Shown here piece after piece: positions 781-10,180 of a DNA stretch of 10,546 bases. The notes under the pieces were generated by a model. It saw only the letters and a program-made list of their open reading frames with translations. It did no database searches and had not been told where the DNA came from. The first letter of the stretch is position 1. Each line of letters begins with the position of its first letter. Both the position numbers and the translations under genes were made by a program. The stretch comes from Anaerolineales bacterium (GTDB lineage: Bacteria > Chloroflexota > Anaerolineae > Anaerolineales > UBA4823): assembly GCA_026415275.1 (NCBI GenBank), contig JAOAHK010000047.1:1-10546 (forward strand), written 5' to 3'.

Positions 781-3700
781 CTATATCTCATCCCCCCGGC
801 AAAGTCGCTCGTAGAGAATAATCGTCTCCTTGGAGGGAGTGACGTTGAGTTCATCAGCTAAAAACACGACCAATTGGTTATAGCTGCGGATTGCTTGCGT
901 ACGTTCGCCCAAACGGCTTAGGCATCGCATGCGCTCGCGATGAGCTTTTTCTAAAAACGGATCTATCCCCAATACCCTTTCAAAGGTCTCTTTTGCTGCA
1001 AGATAGTCTGCTTTGATGAATAAGATTTGGCCAAGATCGATCAGCGCCTGTAGGTGGGTTTGAATAAGCTCCTCGCGGCGAAAAATTGCCCATTCCCCGT
1101 AATCCATCCCCTGTAGAAATTCTCCCCGCCAGAGCCGAACGGCATTCTGCAGAAAAGTTTTCTGCTCCTCCAATCTTTCAGGATTCAACAAGATCGAAGA
1201 ACCGAACTCTGCCGCTTTCCGAACGTGTTCTTCATAATTGGCAACATCGTAATACCAAGATAAGTTCTGATTAACGGAATAAAACTTACCATCAAACTCG
1301 ATGCACGCATTGTCACCCAAGGCTTTACGAATAAAATGGATGCAGCGATGAAAGGAATTCCGAAACTGCTCGGGAGAAGCATCGCTCCACAAATCCAACG
1401 CGATTCGCTCTTTCGTGACTTTGGTTCTTTCCATCAAATAAAAAAACAATTCTTGCGCTTTATGATAGACCCAGCTTGTATCCCGAACAGCGTTTCCAGC
1501 GACATAAACCATGGGTGTCCCAAGTCCATAAACTTGGATCTGCGGAGAGATAACTTTCGCTTGAACGGATTGTTCCTGAGAAGATTTTGGAATCTGTAAT
1601 GATTCTTCGAGCAGAGACCATGCCTCCCCGATTGAAGGAACTGATCGAAATGCATGCATGATCCTATGAAGAGAGGTTGCTAAAGCAACTAGTTGCTCGG
1701 CGAACGGTGATAAGGTCGGAGTATTCCATTTTTGGCGGTGAGTCGAACTCGTCAGCAGGAAAGTGGCAGCCAGCCTTTGATCTTTCGGTGCAAAAACCAA
1801 GGCTGCCATTTCCAAGATTTCCACTCGCGTCATTGGACGATGCCGATGATCTAACTGGGTAACTGCGCAAGTTAAGTCGGCAATAGCATCTTCGTACCTA
1901 TCGTCGACTGACCTCAAGGCCGCCCGACAAGCGTACAGATGTGCCATAAGATCGATGTTATTGGATTGCCGGCATGAGCGAATGCCACCAGAGTACTTCT
2001 CTTCCGCATATTTCCAAAGGAGCCTTTGAACAGCAATATCCCCTAAATCCCGCTCAGTTTCACCTATAAACCAGTTAGCATGGCGCCGCCGATGAATTTG
2101 TTCCGCTTGTTGCATTAAGGCTTCAGCTTCCTGCAGATTTCCCTGTAAGCGTTCGCTTACCCCTCTTAATCGCAAATACAAGGCTTGTGCATGAAGATCA
2201 CCTATGTCATTTGAAAATTGCAATCCCTCATCAATCATGATTTGTAATTGAGCTTGTTTTCCTTGCAATAACGCGATTTCGGCAAGGTTGAAATGAGCCG
2301 CTAGAAGCGAAATACCAAGTTCTTTGGCAATTTGATACGCTTCTTCAAAACACTGTTTTGCCTTCTCATATTCGGCGAGATTGAAGTATAGTAAGCCAAG
2401 ATTATTTAGGGATACGGCAATCGGGTACCGGTCAGGCTGTTCTCGGCGGATTGCTAATGCAGCTTGATGATATTGCAGCGATTTTTCTACCTCACCCAAA
2501 TCGTCTGCCACCAAACCCAGCAAATCCAAGGCGATTGCCTCTAAGTTTGGGTTTGTTGCGCTTTGCGCCAAGCGTAAACTCACTTCTCCCCAATGTTTTC
2601 CAACAAAGCTATCTCCCTGACGACAAGCGATTCGACCGATGACATACGCGGTCTTCGCCTTGATTGCATCTGGTACATTTTGGTCACTCTCAGCAAGGCG
2701 AAAGATTTCTTCCGCCCAGGTGTGCCCTTCTTGCAGCGATCCGTGCATAAACCAATACCGAAAGAGGGCATTGACCAAACGCATCCCCAGAATCAAATGT
2801 TGAGAGTTGATCGCCCATCTCAGGGTTCCCCGAAAATGATCGACTAAATTGTCAATTGCTCGGACCGCTTCACCAGCACCCTGTCCCAGCAATTGGTTTT
2901 CATAGTGTTCTGCAGTGTGAACCGCCCATTCCAAATAGCGCTGCTGAACCTCCTCCGCCCGTCCACTTTCTGCAAGTTTTTGCTTGGCAAATTGGCGAAT
3001 GATCTCTAGGAGACGATAGCTAGCATTGGGATCATCAGGGTAGCTTACCCTGACGATCATCGATTTATCAATCAAACTCAAGAGAAGGTCAATAATCTTT
3101 TCGGGACCGGTATTCGGAGAATAAATTGCTAGAACGAGCTCTAACGAGAAATCCCCGTTCAAGACAGAAAGAAATTGAAGCAAATCTTGCTCCCCCTCGG
3201 AACACAATCCATATCCCCATTCTAGCACTGCTCGGATATCTTGGTGACGTTCTGGCAAGAGATCTTCCTGAAACCTCAAACTACGATGGAGCAAATCTAT
3301 TCCACGCGAAAGTTGTTGATCGATCTGACTAACCGACAGCACAGGTACTAGAGAAGCAGCTAACTCAATCGATAAAGGCAATCCTTCGAGACGGCGGCAA
3401 ATAGAAGCAATTGCCGGTGCATTCGCTTCGGTTAAAGAAAAATCAAAGGCAATTCTCTGCGCTCTCTGACAGAAGAGCGCTACAGACTCGCATTGGATTA
3501 AGTCCTCAATAGGTGTGTTATCTCCGAGCGGGACTGCCAATGGATTGATGCGAATAACTTTCTCGAATGGCAAGCCGAGGGGAATTAAGCTGGTGAGTAA
3601 GATGCGCAGTTCGGGACAGTATCTCTGTAAATCATACACAAATTCTGCAAGTGGTGCGACTAGGTGCTCGGCATTATCGAAAACGATCAATCCGCTCGAA

Positions 3701-4026
3701 TTCGCAAGTACACCGCGGATTAGATGCATCGAAAAACCACCTTCGGAATGGATTCCAAAAGCATCTAAAACGACTTGAGGCAGAAGGCGTTCTTCGGTGA
3801 CCAAGTTCAAATTAACCCACCAGCAATTCCCCTGATACAACCCAATCATTTGATGGGCTATCTCTAAGGCAAGCCTAGTCTTACCACTGCCGGCGCTTCC
3901 GCAAATCGTGACCACCCTATCCTTTCTCAGCGAGTCTTCAACTGCCTGTAATTCGTTTATTCTCCCCACCAAGACAGAAGGGGAGAGCGGTAACCGACCA
4001 AGAATACTTGCCGTTTGGGTTGGCAC
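781..4026 (-). CDS. NB-ARC / TPR transcriptional regulator with C-terminal SARP-like winged helix and BTAD domain
   Basis: A large cytoplasmic regulator of 1081 residues from GTG 4026 (numbering from there). Order: NB-ARC ATPase with P-loop GSAGSGKT (43-50), Walker B LIVFDN (113-118), RILLTS (141-146) and a GLPL motif (215-218); a helical and TPR region (about 460-735, e.g. NLGLLYFNLAEYEKAKQCFE); an OmpR/SARP-type winged helix (about 828-925); and a BTAD domain (about 924-1075, with DVANYEEHVRKA and LYERL). NTP binding through NB-ARC is expected to gate a DNA-binding switch. In Streptomyces SARP/AfsR proteins the winged helix and BTAD come first; here they are last. The frame stays open to ATG 4317, but those 97 codons have no recognisable domain, are rich in AGA/AGG arginine codons (8 of 10 Arg), and carry a strong promoter. 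GTG 4026 has an AGAAGGA site and places LP-x-S-x-LVGR-x-NEL near the N-terminus, as is usual. It heads a probable three-gene operon. The target is unknown. Confidence 0.88.
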   Translation of the reverse strand: MPTQTASILGRLPLSPSVLVGRINELQAVEDSLRKDRVVTICGSAGSGKTRLALEIAHQMIGLYQGNCWWVNLNLVTEERLLPQVVLDAFGIHSEGGFSMHLIRGVLANSSGLIVFDNAEHLVAPLAEFVYDLQRYCPELRILLTSLIPLGLPFEKVIRINPLAVPLGDNTPIEDLIQCESVALFCQRAQRIAFDFSLTEANAPAIASICRRLEGLPLSIELAASLVPVLSVSQIDQQLSRGIDLLHRSLRFQEDLLPERHQDIRAVLEWGYGLCSEGEQDLLQFLSVLNGDFSLELVLAIYSPNTGPEKIIDLLLSLIDKSMIVRVSYPDDPNASYRLLEIIRQFAKQKLAESGRAEEVQQRYLEWAVHTAEHYENQLLGQGAGEAVRAIDNLVDHFRGTLRWAINSQHLILGMRLVNALFRYWFMHGSLQEGHTWAEEIFRLAESDQNVPDAIKAKTAYVIGRIACRQGDSFVGKHWGEVSLRLAQSATNPNLEAIALDLLGLVADDLGEVEKSLQYHQAALAIRREQPDRYPIAVSLNNLGLLYFNLAEYEKAKQCFEEAYQIAKELGISLLAAHFNLAEIALLQGKQAQLQIMIDEGLQFSNDIGDLHAQALYLRLRGVSERLQGNLQEAEALMQQAEQIHRRRHANWFIGETERDLGDIAVQRLLWKYAEEKYSGGIRSCRQSNNIDLMAHLYACRAALRSVDDRYEDAIADLTCAVTQLDHRHRPMTRVEILEMAALVFAPKDQRLAATFLLTSSTHRQKWNTPTLSPFAEQLVALATSLHRIMHAFRSVPSIGEAWSLLEESLQIPKSSQEQSVQAKVISPQIQVYGLGTPMVYVAGNAVRDTSWVYHKAQELFFYLMERTKVTKERIALDLWSDASPEQFRNSFHRCIHFIRKALGDNACIEFDGKFYSVNQNLSWYYDVANYEEHVRKAAEFGSSILLNPERLEEQKTFLQNAVRLWRGEFLQGMDYGEWAIFRREELIQTHLQALIDLGQILFIKADYLAAKETFERVLGIDPFLEKAHRERMRCLSRLGERTQAIRSYNQLVVFLADELNVTPSKETIILYERLCRGDEI

Positions 4027-4031
4027 CAAAA

Positions 4032-4038
4032 TCCTTCT
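4032..4038 (-). promoter_or_regulatory. Ribosome binding site deciding the regulator start (GTG 4026)
   Basis: On the minus strand AGAAGGA (4038 down to 4032) lies five bases upstream of GTG 4026-4024. None of the upstream in-frame ATG codons (4317, 4209, 4140, 4074, 4068) has a comparable purine-rich site at proper spacing. Confidence 0.6.
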
Positions 4039-4072
4039 AAAACTAAACAATAAACGCAAATAGAACATTCCC

Positions 4073-4101
4073 ATTATATAGCGAAGTAAGTTTATTGACA
4101 A
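4073..4101 (-). promoter_or_regulatory. Near-consensus sigma-70-type promoter for the regulator operon
   Basis: On the minus strand TTGTCA (4101-4096, five of six consensus bases), a 17-base spacer, then TATAAT (4078-4073, six of six). Predicted transcription start is near 4066, about 40 bases upstream of GTG 4026. It lies within the open frame leading back to ATG 4317, so it favours the shorter protein. Confidence 0.7.
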
Positions 4102-4521
4102 TTCTTGGGTAAAAAATCCGATTTGAGCAGAGTCTAGCATAGTCGGTTCATCTACCTGGGAACTGTCTTCTTTACCACCGATCTCTGGGAAGTTCCTCAC
4201 TTTTGTCATAGACGGAGGGAGCCTCGAACCCTCGAACCTCACATTTGGACTGTGCGCGTTGACCAAGAGAAGACCATTTTCTAATCTTCTCCTAAGCAAA
4301 TGAGCATCGGTTTTCATCTATGCTTAAGCAGGTAGTGAGCTTCAAGCGATTCAACAACTCTAGGGGGAAAGATTGTTTGATTGCTTTAGAGAAAACTCAA
4401 CTGCCCCTTATTAGTTGGTCAACAGTTTTATTGTTAGCGGCTGTGAGGAATAATCCAATGCAATCTCTTTAGCCGTCTTAGGATGGCCTGCACATTTCTT
4501 ACCAGAAAGCAGGTTTCAGAG

Positions 4522-5868
4522 ATGTTCAAGAAAGTCTTTCCTTTCACTACTTTTGGCGTGCTGGCTCTAACTGCGTGTATTCAAGGCATATTCCCACCCA
4601 CACCATTGCTCTCCACGACAGGTTATAACTTGGACACTCCCGGCAACCCTATTGCCATTGCCGTTGAACCCAATGGACGGAAGAATGTCTTGTGGTTGGA
4701 GAGAGGGGAAGGCGTTGGAGAAGTGGGCAAACTGATCTTTTGGCGAACGCATTTCGGGGAACCGACAGGCACAGCTTCTCTCGATGTCAATTATGCGGCG
4801 GCGCCGGATATTGCGGTGACCGATTCGGGAGTTGCTTACCTTGCGTGGTATCGCTCAAATGCACCTTCTCGGACTTTCCACTATGCCGCGATGCCCGTTG
4901 GGAGCACATCAATCACTCCCAACACGCTTTATTCGGGCGATCTATATAGCACTGCCCTGCATTTGCGAGTCATCGCTCGGGGGGAAGTGGTGTATGCAGT
5001 TTTTCCAGGCTATGGATGTTTATACTTCCAACAACTATCCCCAGGGGCGGGGTCTAGGAAAAAAGTGGCTGACTATGTTGTACCAAATAGCTCGTTAGAA
5101 AATCTGCAAGTGAGCATTGATGCGGCGGATAAGTTGCATGTTGTCTGGGTAGAAAAGGATAATATAGCCGGGAATTATCGCATTCGCTACAACAGCAACG
5201 CTACAACTACCAGTAGTGGAGATATGAATCAAGACCGCGCTATTGGTTACTCCTCACCGGGAGAATCTTTGGCGATTACCAATGCCGGAACGCCTCCCAA
5301 TGAAAAAGTTTATATTCTAAAAAGATTTGAGAGTGGCAGGATTTTCGTCTCCTCCTGTTTGACGAACGGTTGCCCTTTGATGACCGAAAACGAGATCCAT
5401 CTGTCTCCAAGTTCATGGCTGATTTCAGAGCTTCGGGCGGTAGGGATCGGCAGCTCAGTTTATGTTGCTTTTCTGGCTATGAATAGCAGCACATCAAATA
5501 GTGAGCTTTTTTATATTTCCAATCTCACTGCCAACCCAGCCGAGCAGCGGATAACCACCTCCGATTACTCAAAATCTGACTTAAACATGGTGCGGGTGCA
5601 GGGGGAAAGCTTCTTTTTGCCAATTGTTGGTTGGAGACGATACGCTCCGACATCTCCCTACACCTTGGATGATGCCTATATCTGGGCACCCTATTATGGT
5701 ACAAGAAAGATCTTTACCTCCACATCAACCGCCCGGCATCAGGGAAGCGATTTAGCAGCCAATGGCGAGTGGGTGGCCGGCGTGTGGGCAGCCGAATATA
5801 ACGGACGCCTCGTGCCCTTTCTTAGCGGGAATGCCTATCAGTCAAATTTGCCCCTCGTCTCGAAGTGA
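4522..5868 (+). CDS. Lipoprotein with beta-propeller-like repeats
   Basis: A 448-residue exported protein. From ATG 4522 the N-terminus is a lipoprotein signal peptide: KK at 3-4, a hydrophobic core, then lipobox L16-T17-A18-C19, so Cys19 would be lipidated and the protein anchored on the outer face of the membrane. An in-frame ATG at 4483 would add 13 residues before the basic patch and has AGG directly abutting the start, so 4522 is preferred. The body is a series of repeats where a strand ending in an aromatic-W phrase follows a D/G-rich turn: AVEPNGRKNVLWLE, AVTDSGVAYLAWY, SIDAADKLHVVWVE, GIGSSVYVAFLA, AANGEWVAGVWAA. This is the blade pattern of sialidase/BNR-like propellers, but no catalytic Asp-box set is evident, so a binding or structural role is more likely than an enzyme. 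It ends in SNLPLVSK, like the exported protein at 6953-10180. The last 47 bases overlap the convergent RNase H-like gene. Confidence 0.85.
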   Translation: MFKKVFPFTTFGVLALTACIQGIFPPTPLLSTTGYNLDTPGNPIAIAVEPNGRKNVLWLERGEGVGEVGKLIFWRTHFGEPTGTASLDVNYAAAPDIAVTDSGVAYLAWYRSNAPSRTFHYAAMPVGSTSITPNTLYSGDLYSTALHLRVIARGEVVYAVFPGYGCLYFQQLSPGAGSRKKVADYVVPNSSLENLQVSIDAADKLHVVWVEKDNIAGNYRIRYNSNATTTSSGDMNQDRAIGYSSPGESLAITNAGTPPNEKVYILKRFESGRIFVSSCLTNGCPLMTENEIHLSPSSWLISELRAVGIGSSVYVAFLAMNSSTSNSELFYISNLTANPAEQRITTSDYSKSDLNMVRVQGESFFLPIVGWRRYAPTSPYTLDDAYIWAPYYGTRKIFTSTSTARHQGSDLAANGEWVAGVWAAEYNGRLVPFLSGNAYQSNLPLVSK

Positions 5869-6391
5869 GGAACGACTCCATCCATTGACGTAATCGCTCC
5901 TGAGATTGAAGATATGAAGCGTATCGCTCAGAATTTTCATAAACCTCGTCAATCTCTTTCGCCTGGGCAGCAGCCCTCTTTGCCAGTTGATCGGCTTTCC
6001 CCATACCACCATCCCCTGCTCTTTTTTCCTGAAACACCATCTCGACTTTGCGAAATTCCAGCAACTCTTTCACCTCCTCCCATAAGTCTCGATTGGGTCG
6101 CTCCATGCCGTCGATCCCCCGCCAATTCCAACGCCTCTCCCAGATGGATAGCCGATCCCGAACGATTGTATCGTACACATATTCGCTGCAAGTGACACAG
6201 CGAGCGTGCTCTCCCACGGCGATCTGTTCTAAGCCCCGCAGAAAAGCCAGCAGATGCATGCGCGGATCGGTTGAGAGGCGATAGCCGCCCGAGAGTTCCC
6301 GAGTAACTTTTTCGCTTTCAACCACAACCACGCCCCAACCCGCCTTGCCCGGATTCTTATGGGTATATCCTACGCAATAGAGTGTTTTCAT
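5822..6391 (-). CDS. RNase HI-fold protein lacking catalytic residues (probable pseudoenzyme)
   Basis: A 189-residue protein whose first about 145 residues align along their length with RNase HI: NPGKAGWG matches NPGPGGYG, GYRLSTDPRMHLL matches GYTRTTNNRMELM, TCSEYV matches TDSQYV, NRDLW matches NVDLW, ADQLAKRAAA matches CDELARAAA of the E. coli enzyme. RNase HI cleaves RNA in RNA-DNA hybrids using Asp10, Glu48, Asp70 and Asp134 with two metals. Here the equivalents are Val7, His46, Cys68 and Asp134, and the loop His124 is Arg124, so only one carboxylate remains and hydrolysis is not expected. The frame is intact, and the start at ATG 6391 is preceded by AGGAGGTGA, a near-perfect Shine-Dalgarno, so it is presumably well translated rather than a decaying gene. 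A 45-residue charged helical tail (about 145-189) is extra relative to the family. It could bind hybrids or nucleic acid without cutting; that is inference. Confidence 0.85.
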   Translation of the reverse strand: MKTLYCVGYTHKNPGKAGWGVVVVESEKVTRELSGGYRLSTDPRMHLLAFLRGLEQIAVGEHARCVTCSEYVYDTIVRDRLSIWERRWNWRGIDGMERPNRDLWEEVKELLEFRKVEMVFQEKRAGDGGMGKADQLAKRAAAQAKEIDEVYENSERYASYLQSQERLRQWMESFLTSRRGANLTDRHSR

Positions 6392-6394
6392 TGT

Positions 6395-6403
6395 TCACCT
6401 CCT
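6395..6403 (-). promoter_or_regulatory. Very strong Shine-Dalgarno of the RNase H-like gene
   Basis: AGGAGGTGA on the minus strand (6403 to 6395) complements the 16S rRNA tail along its whole length; AGGAGG lies six bases before ATG 6391. It fixes the start codon and implies efficient translation. Confidence 0.85.
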
Positions 6404-6952: not shown

Positions 6953-9900
6953 ATGCGCAAGCTTATTTTCTTTTCATTCTTTTTACTCGTAATCCTTCCC
7001 CTCCTCTGGCAGTTTCGTCCCTCTGTCCAACCCAGCGCTGCTGCGGCCAACGCCTCGATCTCGGTGAACGAGGTGATCGCCAGCGGCTTGCAAGCCCCGG
7101 TGGACATCACCCACGCCGGGGATGGCAGCGGACGGTTATTCGTGGTCGAGCAGCCGGGGCGCATCCGCGTGATCAAGCAAGGGACTTTGCTCAGCACGCC
7201 GTTTTTGGATATCACTTCTTTGGTTTTGTATGGCGGTGAGCGGGGATTCTTGGGTTTAGCATTTCACCCCAACTATAAACAAAATGGCTATTTTTATGTC
7301 AACTACACCCGCAAGCCTGATGGGGCAACTGTGGTGGCGCGTTATCGGGTCTCTACGCAAAACCCAGATGTAGCCGATCCATCTAGCGCTCTAACCCTTC
7401 TGCTCATCCCTCAGCCGTATGCTAACCACAACGGCGGCTGTCTCAAATTCGGACCGGATGGCTATCTCTATATTGGCATGGGGGATGGAGGAAGCGGCGG
7501 CGACCCGCAAAATTACGCCCAGAATAAAGACTCTCTGCTGGGCAAGATGTTGCGCATCGATGTCGATCATGGCAACCCGTATGCCATCCCCGCCAACAAC
7601 CCCTTTGTCAATCAACCCGGCGCAGATGAGATCTGGGCGTTGGGCTTGCGCAACCCGTGGCGCTTCAGCTTTGACCGCTTGAGCGGCGATCTTTACATTG
7701 CCGATGTCGGGCAAAACGCTTGGGAAGAGGTCAACTTTCAGCCGGCCAACGCCGCAGGCGGGATTAATTATGGCTGGCGCTGCCGTGAGGGGGCTCACCC
7801 CTACAATTCCAGCCCGCCTTGTAACAGTGCTAGTTTTCTCGCCACCCTAACCGATCCCTTCACCGAGTACAGTCGTAGCGAAGGATATTCGGTCACAGGG
7901 GGCTTTGTCTATCGTGGCAGCCGTTACCCCAACCTTTACGGCACCTATTTCTTCGCCGACTACGTCAACGGCAAGATTTGGAGCATCAAGAAACTCTCCG
8001 ATTCGCCGCTCACGTGGTCGGCGCGCACTTTGGAAATCCAAGCCGGTTTCAACATCAGCTCGTTTGGCGAAGGCGAAGATGGCGAATTGTATATCGCCAA
8101 CCATAACCAAGGAAAAATCCACCACCTGACCGATCCCAGTGGGCCGGTTGACTTGACCGAAGCACTCAAAGGCTCGCGCAAATTGGTCAGCAGTCCCTGG
8201 GCGGATGCAAATGAAGTGATCACCTACACCATCGAGCTGAAAAACAACTCACTTGCGCCCCTATCCAACGCCGTCCTGACGGATACCCTGCCGGCCAATC
8301 TCACCTACGTCCCCGGTAGCTTTACGGCCTCCACTGGGACAGCAGATGCCTCCCAAGCTCCTGTGCTCAAATGGAATGGCACCTTATCGCCCGGCGTGAC
8401 CACCTTGCGCTATCGGGCACAGGTTAAGACTATAGCGAAAGGCAGTCAAAATAACACAGCTTACCTGAGCCTGAACACCTTACCTGTGCTCTCTCTTGGC
8501 GCTTCGGTATATGTGCCCCGCCCAAAGCTCAATACCAGCGGTGTGGATTTCATTCTGCCCGGCACGCAACCTAATCAACTGCAAGTTTCTCTGCTGGATT
8601 CGACCGATTGCGATACTTGCCACTCGGCGCCGATCTACGACCGTTGGCGGGGCAGTGTGATGAGCCAAGCCGGGCGCGATCCCTTGATGTGGTCAGCCCT
8701 GGCTGCTTCCAACAACGTCGTTCCCAATTCGGGGGAGCTTTGCCTGCGCTGCCATATCCCCAACGGTTGGTTCGACGGTCACAGCCAAGACCCCAGCGGT
8801 GGGCTAATGACCGCCCAAGACCTGCGCAACGGCATCTCTTGCCAACTTGGCCACCGTCTGGTCGATCCCTTCCCTCCCGCAGGAAGTTCCGACCAAGCCA
8901 GCATTATCGATGCCCAAATCCGTCAGAACCTGACCCATCCTTTGCCGGCCAATGCCATCGGCAATGCCATGCTGATCGTCGACCCCAACGACAATCGACG
9001 CGGGCCGTTTGAGCTAGCGCAAAGTTTCAGTTATCACACCGCCTATCGCACCAACTTTTTGGGTCAAACCAGCGATGCGGTCACCCGCTCTCGGTTGTGC
9101 GGCTCTTGCCATAATGTCTTCAATCCTCTACTCAGTTGGGACTCCACCCGCAACCAGTACTGGCCAAACAGCGGCACTTCGCAGGCAACGACCAAAGCTG
9201 CGCCCTACTACCCCATCGAAACGACGTTCAGTGAATGGCTACAGAGCGACTATGCAACAGAGGCAGGCGTCTATGCCCCACAATTTGCCGGGGAGAAAGC
9301 GGATGGCATCCTGCGCGCCTGTCAGGATTGCCATCTCACGCGAGCAACGGGCTACTCGGCTGACCTTGGCTTCAATCCCTTCCAGCGCGATTGCCGCACC
9401 ACGGGCTGCTTGCCTATCCACGATTTGCTCGGCGCAAACACTTGGTTGCCCCAGCTCTTGCTCGATGAGGAGTGGCGACTGAATGCCCTGAGCGATCGAA
9501 GCTATCTCGAGCAGAATCGGATCGCAACCCAATCCTTCTTAAGCAAAGCCGCCACGCTGAACGTGGAGTTGCTGGAGCAAAACGGCAATAAGATCGCCCG
9601 CGTGACGGTCACCAATGAGACGGGGCATAAGCTCCCCACTGGTTACCCCGAAGGGCGGCGGATGTGGCTCAATGTACGCGCTTACGCCTCGAATGGCACT
9701 CTGCTCCAAGAATTTGGCGTTTATCATCGCGGCACCGGCGAGGTGGCAAACGACACAAAAATCTACGAAGTGCTGCAAGGGGTCACCCCCGAGCTGGCAG
9801 CGCTTTTAGGGGTAGAACCGGGGCATAGCTTTCACTTCCTGCTCAACAATACCGTCCTAAAGGACAACCGCATCCCGCCGCGCGGCTTCACCAACGCCAA

Positions 9901-10180
9901 GTTTGATCAGGATGGCTTGCGTCCCGTCGGCGCAACTTACGCCGATGGGCAATATTGGGACACCACGGATTTCACCGTCCCGTCTGAGACAGCGCGGGTG
10001 GTAGTCACCTTGTATTATCAGGTTGCCAGCACGGAATATCTAGATTTTCTGCGCCAGAATGGGGGTTTGGATGGAGAAAGTCTCTGGGGCTTGGCGCAGA
10101 GGACGCCGAACAGCCCACAGGTTGTGCAAGTGGCTCGCTTTCCGGAGCTGCGGTACTATTTTCCGCTGATAGTGCGATAG
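6953..10180 (+). CDS. Exported PQQ-type sugar dehydrogenase (GSDH) fused to DUF11-like and multiheme cytochrome c domains
   Basis: A 1075-residue exported protein. Residues 1 to about 33 are a signal peptide (RK, long hydrophobic core, Ala-rich cleavage region). Residues about 40-395 are a glucose/sorbosone dehydrogenase six-bladed propeller: ANHNGGCLKFGPDGYLYIG puts the catalytic-type His at 159, GLRNPWRFSFD supplies the Arg-Asn pair (233-234), and SVTGGFVYRG and DYVNGKIW are family hallmarks; such enzymes oxidise aldoses with PQQ. Residues about 396-520 resemble a DUF11 beta-sandwich (VITYTIELKN, VLTDTLPANLTYVPGS). From 550 a multiheme region follows: CDTCH (553-557), CLRCH (597-601), CQLGH (630-634, second Cys lost), CGSCH (716-720), CQDCH (790-794). 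A C-terminal domain with NETGHKLPTGYPEGRR (888-903) often accompanies such cytochromes. The architecture suggests electrons pass from sugar via PQQ to hemes outside the membrane; that is inference. It ends in YYFPLIVR. Only a weak GAGA-like site precedes ATG 6953. G+C is visibly higher than in the regulator. Confidence 0.9.
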   Translation: MRKLIFFSFFLLVILPLLWQFRPSVQPSAAAANASISVNEVIASGLQAPVDITHAGDGSGRLFVVEQPGRIRVIKQGTLLSTPFLDITSLVLYGGERGFLGLAFHPNYKQNGYFYVNYTRKPDGATVVARYRVSTQNPDVADPSSALTLLLIPQPYANHNGGCLKFGPDGYLYIGMGDGGSGGDPQNYAQNKDSLLGKMLRIDVDHGNPYAIPANNPFVNQPGADEIWALGLRNPWRFSFDRLSGDLYIADVGQNAWEEVNFQPANAAGGINYGWRCREGAHPYNSSPPCNSASFLATLTDPFTEYSRSEGYSVTGGFVYRGSRYPNLYGTYFFADYVNGKIWSIKKLSDSPLTWSARTLEIQAGFNISSFGEGEDGELYIANHNQGKIHHLTDPSGPVDLTEALKGSRKLVSSPWADANEVITYTIELKNNSLAPLSNAVLTDTLPANLTYVPGSFTASTGTADASQAPVLKWNGTLSPGVTTLRYRAQVKTIAKGSQNNTAYLSLNTLPVLSLGASVYVPRPKLNTSGVDFILPGTQPNQLQVSLLDSTDCDTCHSAPIYDRWRGSVMSQAGRDPLMWSALAASNNVVPNSGELCLRCHIPNGWFDGHSQDPSGGLMTAQDLRNGISCQLGHRLVDPFPPAGSSDQASIIDAQIRQNLTHPLPANAIGNAMLIVDPNDNRRGPFELAQSFSYHTAYRTNFLGQTSDAVTRSRLCGSCHNVFNPLLSWDSTRNQYWPNSGTSQATTKAAPYYPIETTFSEWLQSDYATEAGVYAPQFAGEKADGILRACQDCHLTRATGYSADLGFNPFQRDCRTTGCLPIHDLLGANTWLPQLLLDEEWRLNALSDRSYLEQNRIATQSFLSKAATLNVELLEQNGNKIARVTVTNETGHKLPTGYPEGRRMWLNVRAYASNGTLLQEFGVYHRGTGEVANDTKIYEVLQGVTPELAALLGVEPGHSFHFLLNNTVLKDNRIPPRGFTNAKFDQDGLRPVGATYADGQYWDTTDFTVPSETARVVVTLYYQVASTEYLDFLRQNGGLDGESLWGLAQRTPNSPQVVQVARFPELRYYFPLIVR

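What the first reader, a model, noticed from the sequence alone, without database searches (positions are those of the whole stretch)
5822..6391. RNase HI homologue with three of four catalytic carboxylates replaced
Aligned on NPG, RM-x-L, T-x-S-x-YV and D-x-LA anchors, the E. coli residues Asp10, Glu48, Asp70, Asp134 correspond to Val7, His46, Cys68, Asp134, and His124 to Arg124. The frame is intact, the fold motifs are kept, and the start has a near-perfect Shine-Dalgarno. A maintained, well-translated but non-catalytic RNase H fold suggests a binding role, perhaps for RNA-DNA hybrids or as a scaffold, with an added charged helical tail of about 45 residues.
Basis: partly seen in the sequence, partly recalled or inferred. 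Interest (0 to 1): 0.72.

Follow-up and report, generated by a model that had tools for sequence, protein, structure and literature searches.

The report
Conserved dead copy of RNase HI
Some uncultured Chloroflexota-type bacteria carry, beside ordinary RNase HI, a second copy whose cutting site has been replaced by a different but equally conserved set of residues, so it probably binds something instead of cutting RNA.

Summary
Window 5822-6391 (-) encodes a 189-aa RNase HI-fold protein. E. coli Asp10, Glu48, Asp70 and His124 are Val7, His46, Cys68 and Arg124; Asp134 is kept. This is not decay: 12 of 12 family members found (48-77% local identity to the window) share the replacements, including Asn44→Asp, Asn45→Pro, Gly123→Lys, while 95 of 95 ordinary RNases HI aligned with them keep Asp10/Glu48/Asp70. 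dN/dS between two species is 0.12-0.15 (dS near saturation). Two other genomes of the genus hold both this gene and ordinary RNase HI, so it is a paralogue. It is accessory: 3 of 6 genus genomes, missing at the same locus in two others. Best reading: a neofunctionalised pseudo-RNase HI that binds without cutting. Residues on the DNA-strand side (T43, N100, W85, W90) are invariant; RNA-side residues are replaced, so plain hybrid binding is not favoured. A new Cys/His ligand or metal site is not excluded. An inactive RNase HI is already known in Bacillus subtilis (PMC1950709), so this is a new variant of a known kind; its function is untested.

The parts
5822..6391 (-). pseudo-RNase HI gene, 189 aa
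   Evidence: ORF; PF00075; fold; replaced active site
6371..6373 (-). codon of Val7 (E. coli Asp10 position)
   Evidence: coordinates from the ORF start at 6391; residue pairing
6254..6286 (-). GYRLSTDPRMH motif, residues 36-46, with D42, P43 and H46 (E. coli N44, N45, E48)
   Evidence: placed; invariant D, P, H in 12 of 12
6173..6190 (-). CSEYVY motif, residues 68-73, with C68 and E70 (E. coli D70, Q72)
   Evidence: coordinates from the ORF; 12 of 12
5990..5992 (-). codon of Asp134, the kept fourth carboxylate
   Evidence: D in 9, H in 2, gap in 1 of 12
6395..6401 (-). Shine-Dalgarno-like GGAGGTG
   Evidence: upstream sequence printed
5834..5929 (-). predicted C-terminal helix, residues 155-186, poorly conserved
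   Evidence: alignment
4483..5868 (+). convergent neighbour, 461 aa, no Pfam match; same neighbour in 3 of 3 genomes with the gene
6953..10180 (+). divergent neighbour, 1075 aa, glucose/sorbosone dehydrogenase (PF07995) with DUF11 and a cytochrome c-like part; same neighbour in 3 of 3 genomes with the gene

Best explanation
A neofunctionalised pseudo-RNase HI. Shown: the RNase HI fold is predicted with high confidence; three of four metal carboxylates and the catalytic His are gone; the replacements are fixed across the family; the gene is under purifying selection and coexists with ordinary RNase HI in two genomes. Inferred: an ancestral RNase HI duplicated, the copy lost metal binding and cleavage, and its groove was rebuilt as a fixed new site (V7-T10, S40-H46, C68-Y73, K123). 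Most likely mechanism (inferred): it still docks on nucleic acid through the DNA-strand side of the groove (T41, N100, W84, W90, N13 by window numbering) and acts as a non-cleaving binder or blocker on DNA or a DNA-containing duplex.
For: Fold. Fixed replacement: V, D, P, H, C, E, K in 12 of 12 members against D10, N44, E48, D70 in 95 of 95 ordinary enzymes. Of 31 positions conserved at 90% or more in both groups, 8 differ, and 5 of those are active-site or RNA-contact positions, with no such position unchanged (Fisher p 0.0003; the position set was recalled and chosen after seeing the data). Selection: dN/dS 0.115 (NG86) or 0.152 (YN00), window against G455. DNA-side residues N16, T43, W85, W90, N100 kept in 12 of 12. 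Paralogy: G455 and G448 hold ordinary RNase HI as well. Analogy: inactive RNase II-like pseudonucleases act as RNA-binding proteins (PMC8097288, abstract).
Against: No binding data exist. N16, W85, W90 and N100 may be kept for the fold rather than for binding (W90 and W104 are kept in the dead tandem domains too). D42 and E70 add negative charge where a phosphate backbone would run, and full-length pI in the family spreads from 5.8 to 9.1, so it is not consistently basic. W81, recalled as part of the DNA channel, is R in 11 of 12. dS is near saturation (1.4-1.7) and other pairs could not be computed. The link to the genus's own RNase HI in the tree is weak (86/72). The gene is lost without trace in relatives, so its role is not essential.
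Confidence: 0.45

Rival explanations
1. New ligand or soft-metal site: H46, C68 and D134 (or H134), with D42/E70 nearby, form a Cys/His/Asp site where the Mg site was, binding Zn, Fe or a small molecule, or giving Cys-His chemistry.
For: H46 and C68 replace E48 and D70, which face each other at the metal in RNase HI (recalled geometry), and are invariant in 12 of 12; the third corner is D in 9 and H in 2 of 11 alignable rows, both usual metal ligands.
Against: The D/H exchange is one event seen in two near-identical rows (P0010, P0011). C65 is not invariant (Ile in P0041). H also replaces E48 in 30 of 36 dead tandem domains, where D134 is K in 30 of 36, so H48 alone does not mean a metal site. 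No coordinates were available for measuring geometry.
Confidence: 0.2
2. Partner or regulator: a non-cleaving paralogue that binds or competes with the cell's ordinary RNase HI or another protein.
For: G455 and G448 encode both; a conserved surface with a variable tail suits protein binding; dead paralogues that regulate live ones are known in other families (PMC5201418, search listing and abstract start only).
Against: No complex was modelled. In G000 no ordinary RNase HI was found, but that genome is 67% complete.
Confidence: 0.2
3. A nuclease with unusual metal ligands.
For: D134 kept in 9 of 11; D42, E70, H46, C68 could be ligands.
Against: D10 is Val in 12 of 12 and H124 is lost; both N44 and N45 are replaced.
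Confidence: 0.08
4. A decaying relic with no function.
For: Absent in 3 of 6 genus genomes; G417 shows a deletion of the gene with its neighbour.
Against: Intact frames in 3 of 3 genomes, 50 invariant positions within residues 1-157 in 12 divergent rows, dN/dS well under 1, ribosome-binding sites in 3 of 3.
Confidence: 0.04

Closest known systems
Bacterial RNase HI (rnhA; NCBIfam NF001236, Pfam PF00075)
   Same: Fold, order of elements, NPG, RM, SxYV, NxDLW motifs, handle region, Asp134.
   Different: D10, E48, D70, H124, N44, N45 replaced in 12 of 12; NCBIfam score under cut-off.
Inactive RNase HI of Bacillus subtilis (Group A; PMC1950709, section 6 read)
   Same: An RNase HI-type protein without RNase H activity beside active RNases H is the closest published precedent.
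   Different: Those lack the basic protrusion handle according to the paper; here the handle region is present in the alignment and the change is in the metal site. Their sequences were not compared here.
C-terminal domains of tandem RNase HI proteins (about 300 aa; P0012-P0058 in part)
   Same: Dead RNase H domains with His at E48 (30 of 36) and loss of D10 and D70 in 36 of 36.
   Different: Fused to an active domain; A/T/K at D10/D70/D134 instead of V/C/D; N100 is H in 27 of 36; usually basic (median pI 9.7 over 25 rows). A common clade with the window family is neither shown nor rejected (AU p 0.53).
RNase II-family pseudonucleases such as Ssd1 (PMC8097288, abstract)
   Same: Nuclease turned non-cleaving binder, repeatedly.
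   Different: Unrelated fold and eukaryotic; an analogy only.

Membership tests
RNase HI (catalytic) | RNase H fold / PF00075 | tested here: met
RNase HI (catalytic) | DEDD metal carboxylates D10, E48, D70, D134 | tested here: not met
   V, H, C, D in the window; first three replaced in 12 of 12 members
RNase HI (catalytic) | catalytic His124 | tested here: not met
   R124; R, A, K, Q or V across 12 members, H in 95 of 95 ordinary ones
RNase HI (catalytic) | RNA-strand contacts N44, N45 | tested here: not met
   D42, P43 in 12 of 12; contact role recalled
RNase HI (catalytic) | NCBIfam equivalog cut-off | tested here: not met
   76.5 bits against 160
RNase HI (catalytic) | RNase H activity | not testable with these tools
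   needs purified protein
RNase H1 with hybrid-binding domain (PF01693) | N-terminal hybrid-binding domain | tested here: not met
   no PF01693 match in the window protein at E up to 1; present in the G455 ordinary RNase HI
Dead C-domain of tandem RNase HI | fusion behind an active RNase HI domain | tested here: not met
   189-aa single-domain ORF
Dead C-domain of tandem RNase HI | common clade | tested here: inconclusive
   free trees separate them but the AU test does not reject one clade, p 0.53
B. [quoted passage not shown]
   handle region present without a gap, W85 and W90 kept in 12 of 12
B. subtilis Group A inactive RNase HI | sequence kinship | not tested
   those sequences were not fetched

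The most novel reading that the evidence does not exclude
The old two-metal nuclease centre has been converted into a new Cys/His(/Asp) site that binds a soft metal or a small ligand, or does Cys-His chemistry, in an otherwise intact RNase HI scaffold: a change of chemistry, not only a loss of it.
Probability: 0.15. Interest if true: 0.75.

Novelty: new variant of a known kind. Interest (0 to 1): 0.45.

Why it matters
Most lost active sites drift. Here the three replaced carboxylates and the adjacent RNA-contact residues became a new invariant set, in a paralogue that lives beside ordinary RNase HI. That makes it a clean test of how a nuclease fold is turned to a second use. Together with the tandem proteins that carry a dead second RNase H domain, it suggests that RNase HI folds have been silenced more than once in or near this group; whether E48→His arose once or twice is unresolved. 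It also warns that annotation as 'ribonuclease HI' can be wrong in function.

Tried and rejected
Mobile element, plasmid or phage gene: not supported. 0 relatives of 21 pattern matches in viral contigs. Matches in 42 plasmid and 51 phage records are all under 60% identity; in the 8 rows listed for each the best are 35.7% and 36.1%, annotated, where annotated, as ribonuclease H/HI; active-site residues of those were not inspected.

Recent pseudogene: rejected on conservation and dN/dS.

Frame or assembly artefact: rejected, since the same gene with the same neighbours lies in three separate genomes.

Dead family as descendant of the tandem C-domain: neither shown nor excluded. Quick and careful trees separate them, the AU test does not reject the union (p 0.53).

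Zn site by C65-x-x-C68: dropped, because C65 is Ile in P0041.

Function from neighbours: no link found. The neighbours are a 461-aa protein without Pfam match and a sugar-dehydrogenase/cytochrome-like protein.

Literature: answered searches (open-access library only) listed no paper on this family or on bacterial tandem RNase HI with a dead domain in the rows shown; subscription papers are not held. The rows dropped before the counts: dead and duplicate loci among the 'ordinary' set, P0059 and P0075 (extra domain), and tandem proteins P0030, P0039, P0040, P0050, P0051 and P0062, which the script did not split or was not given.

Full report

Family. A search of 5.8 billion proteins gave 11 members including the window, and a profile search one more, P0041 at 48% over 83% of the window protein (where only the 8000 candidates sharing most words were scored). 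The 11 others have 48-77% local identity to the window; the 12 clusters stand for 58 member sequences. The structural alignment is backed by invariant columns V7, G8, Y9, T10, N13, P14, G15, S40-H46, C68-Y73, W84, W90, R98-N100, D102-W104 and K123. In 12 of 12 the E. coli positions D10, N44, N45, E48, D70, Q72, G123 read V, D, P, H, C, E, K; position 134 is D in 9, H in 2 and a gap in 1; position 124 is R, A, K, Q or V. The comparison set of 95 ordinary RNases HI (59 from Chloroflexota-class and -order searches, 36 proteins from the profile search, all chosen as hits to the dead profile and not by residue) has D10, N44, E48, D70, N100 and H124 in 95 of 95, N45 in 89 and D134 in 92.

What changed and what stayed. 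Of 31 positions conserved at 90% or more in both groups, 8 differ: D10, T42, N44, N45, E48, D70, W81, G123. Five of them belong to the recalled set of catalytic and RNA-contact positions, and no position of that set stayed the same (Fisher p 0.0003; descriptive, because the set was written after seeing the data). Kept in 12 of 12 are N16, T43, W85, W90 and N100. RNase H1 recognises RNA through 2'-OH contacts near the scissile phosphate and DNA through a pocket for one DNA phosphate (PMC4132731, passages); that T43 and N100 belong to the pocket, and N44, N45 and Q72 to the RNA side, is recalled. On that reading the DNA side is kept and the RNA side is rebuilt. The retained Trp and Asn may also be structural.

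Selection and history. Window against G455: RNH 71% identical, dN/dS 0.115 (NG86) or 0.152 (YN00) with dS 1.73 or 1.40; the neighbouring dehydrogenase has 85% and 0.063; the convergent neighbour 65% with dS not computable. The other RNH pairs had saturated or uncomputable dS. The dead family is one clade with full support and a long stem (1.3 and 1.55 changes per column) in both trees. In the careful tree it falls beside the genus's ordinary RNase HI, but weakly (86/72), and a union with the tandem dead domains is not rejected (p 0.53). So duplication within the lineage is likely, not shown.

Distribution. In 396 genomes of the class only the window's own scores in the family range (340.6 bits; next 91.8), and in 400 of the order three do: G000, G455, G448 (340.6, 334.9, 302.2; next 107.7, an ordinary enzyme). 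These two samples overlap. In the genus the gene is in 3 of 6 genomes. One locus of genome contigs was found, QEXX01000001.1, 'Anaerolineae bacterium isolate Nak19' (records near the window may be left out). A narrow DNA pattern found it in 1 of 400 genomes of the phylum; the pattern misses the GYRI variants, so this is a weak test. G455 and G448 also hold ordinary RNase HI; the one tested from G455 has a hybrid-binding domain (PF01693) before RNase_H, and those of G417, G467, G585 and one of G448 look alike by eye. G448 has a second, 164-aa one with Asn at 134. In G000 no other PF00075 match and no RNase HII were found, but it is 67% complete; RNase HII is in the other 5 of 6.

Locus. In 3 of 3 genomes the gene lies between the same two neighbours, convergent to the 461-aa-type protein and divergent from the sugar-dehydrogenase/cytochrome protein. 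In G417 the dehydrogenase region is 96-98% identical at DNA level to the window, but the gene and its convergent neighbour are gone, with a fragment of the window's large regulator gene left, so a deletion is likely. In G585 the end of the convergent neighbour lies 232 bases from the dehydrogenase with no gene between. G467 has no close dehydrogenase copy (54%). The gene is thus dispensable.

Mechanism. Loss of D10, E48, D70 and H124 makes RNase H catalysis very unlikely (established mechanism of RNase HI). The fixed new residues point to a new use of the groove. I rank a non-cleaving nucleic-acid binder using the DNA side first (0.45), then a Cys/His ligand or metal site (0.2), a partner or regulator of another protein (0.2), an unusual nuclease (0.08) and a relic (0.04). 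Against the first: two added acids in the groove, mixed pI (5.8-9.1 full length), loss of W81.

Precedent. PMC1950709 (section 6 read) reports that B. subtilis RNase HI shows neither RNase H nor other nuclease activity, and that this group lacks the basic handle. PMC8097288 (abstract) describes repeated origin of pseudonucleases in the RNase II family that bind RNA. I therefore call this a new variant of a known kind.

Noticed in passing
P0012-P0015, P0018-P0038, P0042-P0053, P0058; L026 (G383:C152); L088-L091: Tandem RNase HI proteins of about 300 aa: an active N-terminal domain followed by a dead C-terminal RNase H domain. In 36 C-domains D10 and D70 are lost in 36, E48 is His in 30, D134 is Lys in 30; C-domains are basic (median pI 9.7 of 25). 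A match spanning both domains at E<=1e-60 occurs in 49 of 396 class genomes (their C-domain residues were not all inspected). Model of P0021: pLDDT 93.8, pTM 0.69, both domains folded. Possibly a built-in substitute for the hybrid-binding domain.
   Followed up: partly
L064-L068 (G448, G455, G417, G467, G585): The genus's ordinary RNase HI appears to carry an N-terminal hybrid-binding (Cauli_VI, PF01693) domain; tested by Pfam for L065 only.
   Followed up: partly
L063 (G448:C10), L049, L052: RNases HI with Asn instead of Asp at E. coli position 134 but D10, E48, D70 and H124 kept.
   Followed up: no
L085 4371-7652 (G417:C15): The dehydrogenase homologue, 98% identical to the window's, is read as two ORFs with one stop inside.
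   Followed up: no
window 781-4317 (-): 1178-aa STAND-type regulator (BTAD, TPR and AAA-like domains) present next to the locus in the window, not seen between the same genes in G455 and G448; a 102-aa fragment-like ORF remains in G417.
   Followed up: partly
window 6953-10180 (+): GSDH-DUF11 protein with several CxxCH-type motifs by eye; cytochrome c matches stay below Pfam cut-offs.
   Followed up: no
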